DNA of 64,000 nt. Origin: Sulfurisphaera ohwakuensis. Its GTDB lineage: Archaea; Thermoproteota; Thermoprotei_A; Sulfolobales; Sulfolobaceae. The DNA lies in assembly GCF_009729055.1 (NCBI RefSeq), contig NZ_CP045484.1, positions 62,001 through 126,000 on the forward strand, given 5' to 3'. Below, one piece after another: positions 54,730 through 58,760 of this stretch. How positions within the stretch are numbered: position 1 is the stretch's first letter; the number at the start of each line of letters is the position of its first letter. Both the position numbers and the translations under genes were made by a program. The notes beneath the pieces are model-generated. The model was not told where the DNA came from, did not search any database, and worked only from the letters and a program-made list of their open reading frames with translations.

Positions 54730-55338
54730 TTAATATGGTGGCTGATAACCACCACCGAACCCACCACTGGGATTACCATATGATCCTCCTCCAAACATAC
54801 CACCTTGTGCTGGTGGAGCATTAGCTACTATTTGAGCAATATAATTAAGTAACTGATCCTCGTTAGTATATTGCTGGTAAACATGATATGCATCAAAGGC
54901 TGCTCCACCTATTCCCAAGATTGTTAGCAATTTGTTATGTAACATCTCATCACTAAAGAATGAAAAACCTCCGCTCATAGCCAATGGAATTAGATCTTGG
55001 ATCCAATTTGCTACACCAGTTTCAATAGTCACCATTCCCGGTCCTTGGCATATTCTTATTGTATAGGCCTTATTTGCGTCAGTTAAAAATCCAAACAAGC
55101 TAGAATGCCTAGCTTGTATAACAACCATATTTTGACTTATCATAGGATTTACTTGAAATCCCATTCCATTTAAGTATGATACCACTTGTTGACCTACGTA
55201 TTGCATATTTATAGGATATGATACTGGTACTGTTATTGTCTTTCCACCTAGTCCTACAAGACCTCCACATAGTGCTGAACCAAATGGAGGTTGTTGTCCA
55301 AAGAATGGAAATCCCATATCCATTATATTTAATTCCAA
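54730..55338 (-). CDS. Conserved hypothetical protein with Gly/Pro-rich tail
   Basis: 202 residues (start at MELNIMDMGF or the ATG six codons later). An ordered body with KTITVPVSYPINMQYVGQQV and a helical segment about 110-160 is followed by a disordered tail rich in Gly, Pro and Tyr (MFGGGSYGNPSGGFGGGY). No signal peptide. It sits inside the inverted repeat pair. A TATATATA-rich promoter is upstream. Probably Sulfolobales-specific; function unknown and origin (host or element) unclear. Confidence 0.65.
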   Translation of the reverse strand: MELNIMDMGFPFFGQQPPFGSALCGGLVGLGGKTITVPVSYPINMQYVGQQVVSYLNGMGFQVNPMISQNMVVIQARHSSLFGFLTDANKAYTIRICQGPGMVTIETGVANWIQDLIPLAMSGGFSFFSDEMLHNKLLTILGIGGAAFDAYHVYQQYTNEDQLLNYIAQIVANAPPAQGGMFGGGSYGNPSGGFGGGYQPPY

Positions 55339-55484: not shown

Positions 55485-55712
55485 ATCATATACCATAATA
55501 ATCAAATTACGAAAAAAGTTTTCACATTTAATGATATCAAAATTCGTGAAGTCAAAGGCAAGTATTATGTTTACTTACTAGAGAAGGATAAAGACTGTCA
55601 GAGAAGGGACCGTTATGTGGATAAGCTTAAAGACGTAGTAAAGTTCTATATTAGTAGTGGAGGTCTGTGGACCCGTAGGTCCCGGGTTCAAGTCCCGGCC
55701 AGAGCCTTGTGA
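55485..55712 (+). pseudogene. Integrase N-terminal relic carrying the tRNA-His 3' half
   Basis: The frame has no start codon. Translated, it holds FNDIKIREVKGKYYVYLLEK and YVDKLKDVVKFY, the same pattern as the integrase at 58.5 kb ([22 protein letters not shown]) but clearly divergent. It then runs through a 36-base exact copy of the tRNA-His 3' half in the sense direction ([13 protein letters not shown]) and stops. The 58.5 kb copy reads tRNA-His antisense, so this came from a different element or an inverted arrangement. Confidence 0.75.
55665..55700 (+). other. tRNA-His 3'-half fragment (attachment-site remnant)
   Basis: 36 bases identical to bases 58706-58671 of tRNA-His (minus strand), from the anticodon loop (CTGTGGA) through the T arm. 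It lacks the 5' half and the acceptor end differs (AGAGCC instead of CGAGCC). A partial tRNA of this kind is what an SSV-type integration leaves at one end of the element, but here it is inverted relative to the intact gene. Confidence 0.85.
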
Positions 55713-55980
55713 GGGATATCCCACACACCCTTACCGCTAATATAGAATTCTACAATCTTATCTAAGGGGCCCTTTAACCATCTTTAAAAAAGCAAGTCTT
55801 TTTCAGTTGAAATTACCTTTACCATAAATCTCATCCCAATTACTTATTAGTATTACTCATCAATTTCCATTTTTATCATCTTGGATAACATCACGTGGTA
55901 ATACACGGTCTCCCTCACCTTAAGCATTTCTTCAATTTATTGAATTTCTAATATTGTTATAATAAATTCCTTTATCTTTC
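55713..55980. other. Spacer between integrase relic and element genes
   Basis: Contains inverted repeat copy B and a 24-codon minus-strand frame (55853-55927; starts MLKVRETVYYHVML and ends MIKMEIDE). No other gene is seen; a T-rich run near 55960-55980 follows the stop of the next minus-strand gene. Confidence 0.5.
55817..55902 (-). repeat. Inverted repeat copy B (partner at 53711-53797)
   Basis: Reverse complement of the left copy with a 32-base identical core at 55851-55882. In the shared frame the two copies differ at codons 2 to 4, two of these changes being synonymous (TTG/TTA, TCT/TCC). That is weak evidence that the sequence was once translated. Confidence 0.8.
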
Positions 55981-56322
55981 TTAGAAAGATATTATTCTAT
56001 CAGAATTTTTGCAAAACGATTTTAGCTCTACCGTACTCAGCGAGAGAGAAACGTTGTTATCTTCATATTCCGCATTGGGCAAAACTTGAAGGTAGTATTT
56101 ATCATAGACGCTTACGTATGAGGGGTTAAGCCAAGGAGCCGTTGAAAGAGCGGAACCGTTTTGAGTCTCTCTGACAATCTGCGTCGATGAAGGCTGAATA
56201 ACAATAGTTTGTGAGTATTTGTAGTATGAAAAATCTCCGCCTCCTCTAAACCTATAAAACGCTGAAGATGGTAAGAGAAAAATGGGTAGGATAAGTAGGG
56301 TTAGGAGTAGGAGCCACTTCAT
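55981..56322 (-). CDS. Secreted or membrane-anchored element protein
   Basis: 113 residues. Signal peptide MKWLLLLTLLILPIFLLPSSA, then a mature part with no recognised domain. A TATTTAAAC box lies about 28 bases upstream, so leaderless. The right-hand neighbours on the same strand are likewise exported. The C-terminus may be truncated where the repeat region begins. Base composition is visibly richer in GC than the host genes around it. Confidence 0.55.
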   Translation of the reverse strand: MKWLLLLTLLILPIFLLPSSAFYRFRGGGDFSYYKYSQTIVIQPSSTQIVRETQNGSALSTAPWLNPSYVSVYDKYYLQVLPNAEYEDNNVSLSLSTVELKSFCKNSDRIISF

Positions 56323-56363
56323 TAAGTGAGAAAAAAGAGAGTGAGTTTAAATAGGGCCTATTT

Positions 56364-56717
56364 TTACTCCTCTTCATCCGGTCTGTGTATTTTGAAGGGG
56401 CTTAGCTCCTCCTCTTGCCAACCGAATTCATAATCGTACCACTTCTTGTAAAGAGTCTTTATACCGTAGTAAAGCTCTTTATACCAAGTTATGAGTAAAA
56501 GTCCTAACCCGATAACTAGTGTTTCCGGCCATAGGTTTGCATACCATGGTGGAGGGGCATAATAACCCGTAGGAGCACAACTTACAAGTGGGTTTGAGCA
56601 TATGGGTGGGGGAGGTAACTGAACCCAAGTTGAGTGGTCTATTGAGTGTAGGTAAGCTGTTAACCCTAGAAGTACCGTGGAAGAACCGGTTAGGACTAAC
56701 TTCTTGTCTTTCATCAT
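56364..56717 (-). CDS. Two-helix membrane protein with proline-rich loop
   Basis: 117 residues from the ATG pair at 56715-56717, about 28 bases after a CTTTATAAGT box; the frame is open further upstream into the next gene but that start is less likely. Helices at about 5-23 and 61-81 flank an exposed loop with PPPPICSNP and APPPWYAN. The tail is acidic (HRPDEEE). This resembles small structural or accessory proteins of Sulfolobus viruses and plasmids in style; no homologue is named. Confidence 0.55.
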   Translation of the reverse strand: MMKDKKLVLTGSSTVLLGLTAYLHSIDHSTWVQLPPPPICSNPLVSCAPTGYYAPPPWYANLWPETLVIGLGLLLITWYKELYYGIKTLYKKWYDYEFGWQEEELSPFKIHRPDEEE

Positions 56718-56754
56718 TAAAAACAAATAAAAAAGGTTTAACTTATAAAGGTTT

Positions 56755-57857
56755 TCACAAGACGTATTCAAAACCGTAGCTAGGTATCGCAATATCGCTT
56801 TGTGTGCTAGTAACTAAGCTGACAAACGGGTGACCGCCTAACTGGTTCACCGGCAAACCATTTATTTGTGCATAAGCTTCGATACCTTGCTGAGTTCCTA
56901 GCATCCAGTAAGAGACATTATAGTAATAAGTAACATATACTACACGACCGTACATATGTTCTGATTGTTTTCCGATATATTCGCTCGCACCCCACGCTAC
57001 ACCGGAAGGCGGTGGGTTTAAGCCAATCATAGTCCCTGAAACAGCACTGGAACTAGCTGAATCTGAAGATATTAAGTTCTGTCCGTACCACGGTGCCTGA
57101 TATTCTTCATATCTGGTTCCGTTTAGTATAATTAGTTGGAATAATGTAACAAAGTACGGGTTAGAGTCAGTAAAAGAGTATTGGGACGGCGCATGAACTT
57201 CTACAGAGACACTCGGGTAAGCTATACCTTGACCGCTAACACTCTTGAGTAACACTGAGCTAGCTGTGCTAGGAACTGTGTTAAATGTTAAAGCGCAATT
57301 ATTATTAAATACAATTTTCTCGCCGGGGTAGATCGGAGTACCGGGGAAGTTGAACCCTTGCCCGTTATAACCAAATATAGCATACCAAGTACTACCTTCA
57401 CTTAATGCTGTAATTACAAAACTACTTTGAGGGTTGTAAGGTACTTGTTCTAAAATAGGGGGTAATGTAATGTATTGAGGAATAGGAAAACCATTAACAA
57501 TTTCAGTATAGTTTACGATGATATCGGTCTCTATTACAGAAACTCCGTTAACAACATATGTCAGTACTAACTGGAGTATAATTCCGTCAAACGGATATGA
57601 TGTCCGTTAATTGTTAATGTCCCCGTCGCTTGTAACGGTATGTTTAGCATTTCTAACACAGTGTAGAACCCGCTATCGTTCAATGCGAAGTAAGAGAAGC
57701 TAGAGAAATAAACCATATAATAACTATACCCCGCTAAGTTCGAATTGTATGCCGAAATCGCCCAATCGTATCCGCTTATTTGTGCCGACGGTAGTATGCT
57801 TAATGCTGGGATTAGTAGTAGTGTTAGAAAGGTTAGGGAAAGTAGGGGCTTCCACAT
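56755..57857 (-). pseudogene. Frameshifted secreted glycoprotein-like gene of the element
   Basis: Two frames join to about 368 residues. The first part (57857 down to about 57604) has signal peptide MWKPLLSLTFLTLLLIPALS and a Ser/Tyr-rich start; the second part continues to 56755 (VSVEVHAPSQYSF, GTRYEEYQAPWYG, MYGRVVYVTYYYNVS). Restoring one base near 57603-57605 would read ING-TSYPFDG, adding an N-glycosylation site and continuing smoothly. Many N-x-S/T sites and Tyr suggest an exposed surface protein. A TTTTAAAG box precedes the ATG. Either a real pseudogene or a sequencing error. Confidence 0.65.
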
Positions 57858-57892
57858 TTGCCGAGAAGAGAGAATTAGACTTTAAAAGGGGC

Positions 57893-58117
57893 TCAAGACA
57901 CGCAGATATTATGTTTTTTGCAAACATGGTCTAGGAGTGCATCCGTGTTTGCGAACTCCTTTCTGCACACCGGACAAGTTGTCGTATGCTCAGCATAACG
58001 TATGTGCTGTTTGAGAGAGACGGAAGAGCTGAAGGGCATTAGGCATAACGGGCAAACGTAAGGGGAAACTGCTTTACTTGTCAACAACTTATAGAGATAA
58101 CTACTTTCATCCAACAA
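57893..58117 (-). CDS. Double C2H2 zinc-finger protein of virus/plasmid type
   Basis: 74 residues. Finger 1: CPLCLMPFSSSVSLKQHIRYAEH; finger 2: CPVCRKEFANTDALLDHVCKKH, both with classic spacing. Small C2H2 proteins like this are common in Sulfolobus fuselloviruses and plasmids, where they act as regulators. The start is TTG (TTG-TTG-GAT). It is the best single piece of evidence that the 56-58 kb block is of viral or plasmid origin. Confidence 0.8.
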   Translation of the reverse strand: MLDESSYLYKLLTSKAVSPYVCPLCLMPFSSSVSLKQHIRYAEHTTTCPVCRKEFANTDALLDHVCKKHNICVS

Positions 58118-58155
58118 CTTTAGATTATGGATTAACGCTTTAACGATTGCCCTTA

Positions 58156-58269
58156 TTAATCTTTTCTGTTCCGGCCGAGAGAATAATAATGTTCAAGTTC
58201 CTCTAAAGTTACATGAATCGTAATTCCTTTATGATTACTCAAGTACTCTTTACTGCCTGACCCTGCCAA
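58156..58269 (-). CDS. 37-residue frame upstream of the zinc finger
   Basis: Begins at a TTG directly after an in-frame stop: AGSGSKEYLSNHKGITIHVT, then LEELEHYYSLGRNRKD. The composition is protein-like (helix LEELEHYYSLGR), but the start is weak and it may be the remaining C-terminus of a decayed element gene. No family recognised. Confidence 0.4.
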   Translation of the reverse strand: MAGSGSKEYLSNHKGITIHVTLEELEHYYSLGRNRKD

Positions 58270-58457
58270 TTAATTAGGAGATGCTGAGAAATTTCCAAGT
58301 TATATGTTTAAAAGAGATTCCCTTGAACAAATGTATATATCTCAGGGATGCAGAATCTTTGCCGTCTTCTTTCAACTCTACGCGTTTTTACGGTAAAAAT
58401 TAACGGGTTGCAAAAGCTTATGAACACAAATTGGCAACCATAATACAGTGAGGAGTT

Positions 58458-58760
58458 TTGGCGGATAAGCAACGTAGATATAAATTCGGCGATTATATCT
58501 TAAGGGAAAGAAAAGGTCGGTATTATGTCTATAAATTGGAAACGATGAATGGTGACGCAAAGGAAACTTACGTGGGTCCCTTAATCGACGTCGTTGAGAC
58601 TTATCTAAAATTGAAAGAAAGTGGGGGTGTGGGGGTGTCCCCCACTGGGGGTTTCCCCCTAAAGGGCTCGGGCCGGGACTTGAACCCGGGACCTACGGGT
58701 CCACAGCCCGTCGCTCTAACCAGGCTGAGCTACCCGAGCCAATCCCATTATTATTTCTAA
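58458..58760 (+). pseudogene. SSV-type integrase N-terminal fragment overlapping tRNA-His
   Basis: About 100 residues, TTG start after GTGAGGAG. The sequence [24 protein letters not shown] and [18 protein letters not shown] is the N-terminal domain of archaeal partitioned tyrosine recombinases; then it reads through tRNA-His antisense ([19 protein letters not shown]) and ends. The catalytic C-terminal domain is absent. This is int(N), the half left beside the tRNA when an element integrates; the matching int(C) is not in the window. Confidence 0.85.
58664..58740 (-). tRNA. tRNA-His (GTG anticodon)
   Basis: Acceptor GGCTCGG/CCGAGCC with discriminator C at 58664, as required for His. D arm GCTC/GAGC, anticodon stem ACGGG/CCCGT with loop CTGTGGA, T arm CCGGG TTCAAGT CCCGG. 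No intron. The G at position -1 is not encoded (T there), so it would have to be added after transcription. It is an integration target: int(N) overlaps it. Confidence 0.94.

What the first reader, a model, noticed from the sequence alone, without database searches (positions are those of the whole stretch)
55981..58269. Cargo of exported proteins and a zinc finger, each with its own leaderless promoter
Four minus-strand genes of higher GC content encode two signal-peptide proteins, a two-helix membrane protein with a proline loop, and a double zinc finger. Several have a TATA box 23-28 bases before ATG. The set is not one I can name; it could be an undescribed virus or plasmid envelope/adhesion module.
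Basis: partly seen in the sequence, partly recalled or inferred. Interest (0 to 1): 0.6.

Follow-up and report, generated by a model that had tools for sequence, protein, structure and literature searches.

The report
Fossil fusellovirus toxin cassette at tRNA-His
The four genes are the worn-down remains of a spindle-shaped virus that once inserted into this hot-acid-spring archaeon's histidine tRNA gene; what survives is the virus's secreted-toxin cassette, and other species in the family repeatedly keep the same cassette after losing the rest of the virus.

Summary
Window 55981-58269 is part of a decayed fusellovirus (Sulfolobus spindle-shaped virus, SSV) provirus in tRNA-His. Gene by gene it matches the SSV order b129 zinc finger - secreted toxin - small membrane 'gene 2' - vp4 tail fibre, next to an E54 remnant and the N-terminal half of an SSV-type integrase abutting the tRNA. 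The TATA boxes sit where SSV1 promoters T3 and T4 are mapped. The '368-residue' protein is the toxin-position gene, of ASV1 A367 type (44-54% identity), now frameshifted. The zinc-finger gene is frameshifted, vp4 is cut after about 100 codons, and gene 2 is open. The wider pattern is new to me. In 31 Sulfolobaceae genomes, 20 loci in 13 genomes keep this cassette without the virus. VP1 survives outside complete proviruses at only 2 places, the DnaA-like gene at 1 and B277 at 0. Thirteen of 15 vp4 fragments are the cassette-side 5' end. Some loci are arrays with more gene-2 than toxin genes; six toxins are intact. This suggests selection for the cassette. tRNA-side deletion bias could explain about half of the loci, and toxicity and immunity are untested here.

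The parts
58664..58739 (-). tRNA-His(GTG), the integration target
   Evidence: ARAGORN. DNA identity with three genus members ends exactly at its 3' end, 58663.
58458..58658 (+). Int(N): N-terminal fragment of an SSV-type 'suicidal' integrase, running into the tRNA 3' half
   Evidence: PF07935 E=4.7e-33; ASV1 integrase 68% over residues 1-76.
58357..58440 (+). remnant of fusellovirus gene E54 (residues 27-54), the gene before int in SSV1
   Evidence: tblastn 64% identity, E=6e-9; gene order.
57893..58260 (-). b129 double C2H2 zinc-finger gene, broken by a frameshift near 58165 (residues 7-39 at 58260-58162, residues 36-129 at 58174-57893)
   Evidence: tblastn 82-86% to SSV1/SSV2/SSV7/ASV1; PHROG 9259 E=6e-44; PF22034 E=2.4e-14.
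57881..57887 (-). TATA box of the toxin gene, equivalent of SSV1 promoter T3
   Evidence: TTTTAAA at -30 to -24, in a 14-base match with one difference to SSV1.
56755..57857 (-). toxin-position gene (SSV1 a291 / ASV1 A367 equivalent), secreted-protein type; pseudogene through a frameshift near 57600
   Evidence: ASV1 A367: 54% (residues 2-101) and 44% (residues 84-363) in two frames; complete provirus of G005: 49-55%; position between b129 and vp4.
56742..56749 (-). TATA box of gene 2
   Evidence: TTTATAAG at -32 to -25.
56364..56717 (-). gene 2 (C124/C108/A137 position): 117-aa two-helix membrane protein with proline-rich loop; open frame
   Evidence: PHROG 9637 E=1e-14; SSVK1 C108 47% over residues 42-101, ASV1 A137 27%; G005 provirus gene 2 43%.
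56346..56353 (-). TATA box of vp4, equivalent of SSV1 promoter T4
   Evidence: TATTTAAA at -31 to -24.
56023..56322 (-). 5' end of vp4 (tail fibre, C792), about 100 codons, truncated; the open frame runs on to 55981
   Evidence: SSV1 C792 55% over residues 1-98; SSV7 C811 56%; PHROG 6848 end-filament E=6e-27.
55891..56036 (.). dispersed repeat at the point where vp4 breaks off
   Evidence: 73-74% matches in loci L133 (two copies), L153 and L082 of other genomes.
55512..55772 (+). older integration scar: a second Int(N) (55512-55652, +), a 45-base copy of the tRNA-His 3' half in inverted orientation (55662-55706), and a short third Int(N) stretch on the minus strand (55707-55772)
   Evidence: SSV6 integrase 71%; 96% match to relatives' tRNA-His; sequence.

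Best explanation
The region is a decayed fusellovirus provirus at tRNA-His that kept the virus's toxin cassette. How the intact form worked: (1) a circular SSV-type virus recombined into the 3' half of tRNA-His through its own integrase gene, leaving Int(N) beside the tRNA (shown by sequence); (2) B129, a zinc-finger protein, probably regulates the neighbouring viral genes (inference); (3) the T3-like leaderless promoter drove a secreted toxin that inhibits related uninfected cells (position and signal peptide shown; activity inferred from SSV1 and SSV9); (4) gene 2 makes a small membrane protein linked to the toxin allele (function unknown); (5) the T4-like promoter drove the VP4 tail fibre. 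Today the toxin and zinc-finger genes are frameshifted and vp4 is truncated, so the locus cannot make a virus or a whole toxin; only gene 2, with its own TATA box, could still be expressed. The same cassette survives repeatedly in other chromosomes, most likely because it was selected after the rest of the virus was useless: losing it would expose a cell to toxin from its kin (inferred).
For: Gene-by-gene homology in SSV order and strand with E54 and Int(N) (against the maps). A complete provirus in G005 carries the same toxin and gene-2 family between early genes and full vp4. Mapped SSV1 promoters T3 and T4 coincide with the window TATA boxes. SSV9 B310 and SSV1 a291 at this position are secreted toxins (PMC8628083, PMC13431529). 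Selective retention: profile searches of the same 31 genomes find all four complete proviruses each time. Outside them, B277 occurs 0 times, DnaA-like once, VP1 twice, and vp4 15 times with 13 being 5'-end only. Cassette genes occur at 20 loci in 13 genomes. Sign tests: 13 against 2, p=0.004; 5' neighbour kept 12 times against 3' neighbour 0, p=0.0002. Vp4 break points differ between loci (codons 21 to 233), so most losses look independent.
Against: The A367-type protein has no detectable sequence similarity to the tested toxins beyond the signal peptide. Its fold could not be modelled (mean pLDDT 31.7), so 'toxin' rests on position and secretion. Published tests found no antitoxin effect of gene 2 in SSV9 or SSV1. 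Gene-2 frames are not open more often than their shorter length predicts (p about 0.11-0.18). About half of the cassette loci lie beside a tRNA or Int(N), where one-sided deletion could leave them without selection.
Confidence: 0.85

Rival explanations
1. Same provirus, no selection: deletions of integrated SSVs are one-sided. The tRNA and the adjacent Int(N) are kept, and in compact 11-12 kb SSVs the b129-toxin-gene 2-vp4 5' segment is simply the piece nearest to Int(N), so it is the last to go.
For: Compact SSVs have b129 within about 2 kb of int, and one search shows them as the best DNA matches to the b129-Int(N) part of the window. By my count about half of the cassette loci (window, L133, L111, L157, L123, L035, L068, L027, L025, L156) are close to Int(N) or a tRNA. 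Frames are often broken.
Against: The other half (L125, L150, L026, L151, L155, L152, L154, L164, L165, L166) are not beside Int(N) or a tRNA. Genes between Int(N) and b129 are lost even in the window, where only about 100 bases separate E54 from b129. Arrays with repeated b129 3' ends (L125) and extra gene-2 copies (L150) need repeated recombination, not just deletion. L164 keeps toxin and vp4 5' end joined directly to dnaA and Int(C), i.e. an internal deletion.
Confidence: 0.3
2. The cassette is itself mobile: a small satellite-like element or recombination unit (b129 3' end - toxin - gene 2 - vp4 5' end) that shuttles between SSVs and chromosomes by homologous recombination in the conserved flanking genes.
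For: Toxin alleles vary while b129 and vp4 are conserved; ASV1 carries two zinc finger-toxin-gene 2 units in tandem. The S. tokodaii-like genome has three units separated by b129 3' ends. The orthologous 1.73-Mb loci of G000 and G002 carry different alleles between similar flanks.
Against: No free element consisting of the cassette alone was found in phage, plasmid or IMG/VR searches. Break points in vp4 and b129 vary rather than being fixed ends.
Confidence: 0.25
3. One reading: an undescribed virus or plasmid envelope/adhesion module.
For: Secreted and membrane proteins are present and vp4 is an adhesion (tail fibre) gene.
Against: Every gene has a counterpart in the same order in described fuselloviruses.
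Confidence: 0.03

Closest known systems
Acidianus spindle-shaped virus 1 (ASV1, Betafusellovirus yellowstonense), genes C125-A367-A137-C806
   Same: Zinc finger, 367-aa secreted protein, small membrane protein and large fibre gene in the same order; A367 is the closest viral protein (44-54%).
   Different: ASV1 has two such units and a complete genome; its fibre gene after A137 is C806-type, whereas the window's vp4 is C792-type.
SSV1 / SSV2 / SSV7 / SSVK1 (Alphafusellovirus) b129 - toxin - gene 2 - vp4
   Same: b129 76-86%, vp4 5' end 50-56%, gene order, T3 and T4 promoters.
   Different: Toxin allele unrelated in sequence beyond the signal peptide.
Secreted SSV toxins B310 (SSV9) and A291 (SSV1)
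   Same: Genome position, signal peptide, size class.
   Different: No sequence match outside the signal peptide; activity and fold of the A367 type untested; the window copy is a pseudogene.
SSV-like remnants at tRNA genes in Sulfolobus islandicus (PMC3718332)
   Same: Degenerate fusellovirus remains with int(N) at a tRNA.
   Different: In the passages I read that paper does not report which genes survive selectively; different tRNA (Thr-GGT).
Orphan immunity gene arrays of bacterial type VI effectors (Vibrio cholerae, PMC5361080)
   Same: Chromosomal arrays in which small partner genes outnumber toxin genes.
   Different: Gene 2 is not shown to be an immunity gene; published tests were negative.

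Membership tests
Fuselloviridae provirus | SSV-type integrase split at a tRNA, Int(N) overlapping the tRNA 3' half | tested here: met
Fuselloviridae provirus | conserved order b129 - toxin - gene 2 - vp4 on one strand, int on the other | tested here: met
Fuselloviridae provirus | capsid genes VP1/VP3, B277, DnaA-like gene, Int(C) | tested here: not met
   No VP1, B277 or DnaA-like match in this genome and no capsid, B277, DnaA-like or Int(C) match at the locus: it is a remnant, not a virus
SSV secreted toxin (A291/B310 group) | gene between b129 and vp4 behind a T3-type promoter | tested here: met
SSV secreted toxin (A291/B310 group) | N-terminal signal peptide | tested here: inconclusive
   Typical MWKPLLSLTFLTLLLIPALS start; hhalign aligns only this part; no SignalP available
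SSV secreted toxin (A291/B310 group) | hydrolase-like beta-rich fold reported for A291, B310 and SSV10 ORF299 | tested here: inconclusive
   AlphaFold model too poor (mean pLDDT 31.7); Pfam and PDB profile searches empty
SSV secreted toxin (A291/B310 group) | sequence similarity to tested toxins | tested here: not met
   hhalign 11-13% probability, signal-peptide end only
SSV secreted toxin (A291/B310 group) | growth inhibition of uninfected cells | not testable with these tools
   Needs a lawn assay; the window copy is frameshifted
Toxin-immunity array (polymorphic toxin type) | small partner gene confers immunity | not testable with these tools
   Published SSV9 and SSV1 tests negative
Toxin-immunity array (polymorphic toxin type) | orphan partner genes outnumber toxins in arrays | tested here: met
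   L150 1:3, L154 1:2, L156 1:2, L035 1:2, L111 about 2:3 toxin:gene 2; some SSVs have two small genes anyway

The most novel reading that the evidence does not exclude
Sulfolobales chromosomes collect and keep fusellovirus toxin cassettes as host-owned competition or immunity loci. After infection everything but the zinc finger-toxin-gene 2 cassette is lost, because cells that delete it become sensitive to toxin from their relatives. The cassettes then recombine into arrays of toxin and gene-2 alleles, as orphan immunity arrays do in bacteria.
Probability: 0.35. Interest if true: 0.75.

Novelty: new member of a known kind. Interest (0 to 1): 0.45.

Why it matters
The window locus itself is an ordinary kind of object, a virus fossil at a tRNA. 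It led to a pattern I did not find described: across a family of archaea, the part of chronic viruses that survives in chromosomes is the secreted-toxin cassette. If selection is the cause, it is a chromosomal record of virus-mediated warfare between archaea. It would also offer a direct route to the open question of what protects toxin producers, since arrays with several intact gene-2 alleles and six intact chromosomal toxin genes can be tested one by one.

Tried and rejected
Structure of the toxin family: AlphaFold on ASV1 A367 with the window pieces gave mean pLDDT 31.7, so no fold search was run; deeper alignments could not be used because viral collections hold only ASV1 as a relative. 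I suspected from memory a link of the toxins to acid glutamic peptidases (motifs NWAG......QAG......VEAP...); Pfam, NCBIfam and PDB sequence searches gave nothing, so it is not claimed. Profile-profile links between A367 and other SSV toxins: signal peptide only. Gene 2 preserved by selection: open frames are not more frequent than length predicts, and dN/dS between gene-2 copies (0.47 and 0.99) is confounded by divergence inside viruses. A simple direct-repeat provirus between 55706 and 58664 was rejected because the left tRNA copy is inverted and there is no Int(C) at the locus. 'G2' hits of length 674 are a naming error of my script (ASV1 C674) and were ignored.

Full report
What is there. 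The window is 62001-126000 of a single-contig 2.80-Mb genome. One close relative, G002, is 2,694,756 bases long, which matches Sulfurisphaera (Sulfolobus) tokodaii strain 7 (own knowledge), so the host is probably a Sulfurisphaera. At 55981-58269 there are four minus-strand genes with about 41% GC against about 30-34% in most of the window. From right to left they are a C2H2 double zinc finger, a signal-peptide protein in two frames, a two-helix protein with a proline-rich loop, and a second signal-peptide protein.

Identity. PHROG and tblastn matches name each gene. The zinc finger is fusellovirus B129 (82-86%; PHROG 9259, E=6e-44). The two-frame protein matches ASV1 A367 (54% and 44% in the two frames). 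The two-helix protein matches the small gene after the toxin (SSVK1 C108 47%, ASV1 A137 27%, PHROG 9637). The 113-aa frame is the first ~100 codons of vp4, the tail fibre (55%; PHROG 6848). To the right lie 28 residues of E54 and then Int(N) of an SSV-type integrase (PF07935 E=4.7e-33) running into tRNA-His. SSV1 has E54-int on one strand and b129-a291-c124-c792 on the other, exactly as here. ASV1 has C125-A367-A137-C806.

Promoters. SSV1 transcripts T3 and T4 are mapped one base before a291 and c792 with box A about 25 bases upstream. The window has the same arrangement: CCTTTTAAAGTCTA before the toxin gene against CTTTTTAAAGTCTA in SSV1, TATTTAAA before vp4 and TTTATAAG before gene 2.

State of decay. 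The toxin-position gene has a frameshift near 57600, b129 one near 58165 and a lost start, vp4 stops after about 100 codons at a dispersed repeat (55891-56036), and Int(C), VP1 and the rest are absent at the locus. This genome has no VP1, B277 or DnaA-like match anywhere. Gene 2 is open. In the three other genus members searched, right-flank identity stops exactly at the tRNA 3' end. G002 has a tyrosine-integrase element there instead, and the remnant is absent from the loci fetched.

What the 368-residue protein probably was. SSV9 B310 and SSV11 p29, in this same position on transcript T3, are secreted toxins of related cells; SSV1 a291 is required for growth inhibition but not for virions; signal-peptide cleavage is needed; only the signal peptide is conserved between alleles; short downstream genes are linked to the toxin allele (PMC8628083, PMC13431529). 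The window gene fits position, size and signal peptide. It shares no detectable sequence with those toxins beyond the signal peptide, and its fold could not be predicted. I therefore call it 'toxin-position gene, probably a toxin allele', not a proven toxin.

Where else it occurs. A full-length relative lies in a nearly complete provirus in G005. A b129-toxin pair, both genes intact, stands alone in G011. A 351/352-aa secreted protein about 28% identical sits at a conserved chromosomal place in G000 and G003 without other virus genes and evolves under purifying selection (dN/dS 0.11, like its neighbours at 0.13).

Survey. Int(N) profiles were sought in 31 Sulfolobaceae genomes, and 80 Int(N) flanks plus earlier loci were annotated with fusellovirus proteins. 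Profiles of b129, vp4, B277, DnaA-like and VP1 were then run on the same 31 genomes and further loci were read. Four complete or nearly complete proviruses are found by every profile. Outside them B277 occurs 0 times, DnaA-like once and VP1 twice. Toxin and/or gene-2 cassettes occur at 20 loci in 13 genomes of 5 genera (an orthologous pair in G016 and G028 counted once). Of 15 partial vp4 genes, 13 are the 5' end only, and 12 of those 13 have toxin or gene 2 beside them; none has the 3' neighbours B78 or C166. Sign tests give p=0.004 and p=0.0002. Vp4 break points range from codon 21 to 233, so most are separate events. Several b129 remnants are the 3' end only. The controls are more conserved than the toxins, which works against the bias seen.

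Arrays. G002 at about 1.725-1.730 Mb holds three toxin pseudogenes, each followed by an open gene 2, separated by b129 3' ends and ending in a vp4 5' end. The ASV1 record notes relatives ST1724, ST1725 and STS262 in S. tokodaii. The orthologous 1.73-Mb locus of the window's own genome carries different alleles between 88-94% identical flanks. G003 has one toxin with three gene-2 copies. By my count of frames, six chromosomal toxins outside complete proviruses are intact (in L111, L133, L151 twice, L155 and L026) against about 16 broken. Gene-2 copies are open in about 21 of 27 cases, which is not more than their length predicts.

Interpretation. That this is a decayed fusellovirus toxin cassette is close to certain. 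Why such cassettes survive is inferred. Selection (self-protection by toxin carriers, reported for SSV9, would punish loss) fits cassettes away from tRNA genes, internal deletions such as L164, and arrays. One-sided deletion toward the tRNA explains about half of the loci without selection, since compact SSVs have b129 near int. Both may act. Within the open-access library searched I found SSV remnants described (PMC3718332) but no report of selective retention of the toxin segment.

Noticed in passing
window 55512-55772: Older scar at the same tRNA: Int(N) of SSV6 type (+), a 45-base tRNA-His 3' half inverted relative to the real tRNA, and a short Int(N) on the opposite strand. SSV6 and SSVK1 integrases carry the tRNA half in sense orientation, SSV1/SSV2/SSV7/ASV1 in antisense, so layered integrations plus an inversion are likely.
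   Followed up: partly
L125 (G002:C1 about 1.7250-1.7297 Mb): Array of three fusellovirus toxin pseudogenes, each with an open gene 2, separated by b129 3' ends and closed by a vp4 5' end, in a genome whose length matches S. tokodaii.
   Followed up: yes
L035 (own genome, C1 about 1.7324-1.7365 Mb): A second fusellovirus remnant in the same genome with a broken SSV2-type toxin and two open gene-2 genes; flanks 88-94% identical to L125 but different alleles inside.
   Followed up: yes
L033:1165-2220 (own genome C1 about 219.2-220.2 kb) and L028:8238-9296 (G003): Secreted 351/352-aa host protein distantly related to the toxin (28%), same neighbours in both genomes, dN/dS 0.11; a cellular relative of a viral toxin-position protein.
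   Followed up: partly
L026:9859-11305 (G011): Intact b129 zinc finger plus intact A367-type toxin alone between PQQ-repeat-like surface protein genes, no gene 2 or other virus genes found nearby.
   Followed up: partly
L010:11552-15506 (ASV1): ASV1 carries two complete zinc finger-toxin-gene 2 units in tandem (C137-B276-C106 and C125-A367-A137), suggesting the unit is modular.
   Followed up: no
L133:13138-14205 and L111:11284-11661: IS110-like transposase genes follow directly where vp4 is cut at codons 233-235 and 222-227 in two genomes of one genus.
   Followed up: no
G003:C1:479454-480310: The gene that flanks the window hotspot on the left (54730-55338) is inverted relative to tRNA-His in G003, next to two Int(N) scars: inversions recur at this site.
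   Followed up: no
L158:7436-10981 (G017) and L160:7413-11202 (G009): Zinc finger plus SSV6 B1232/ASV1 A1231-type fibre gene beside Int(N): intact frame in L158, broken in L160.
   Followed up: no
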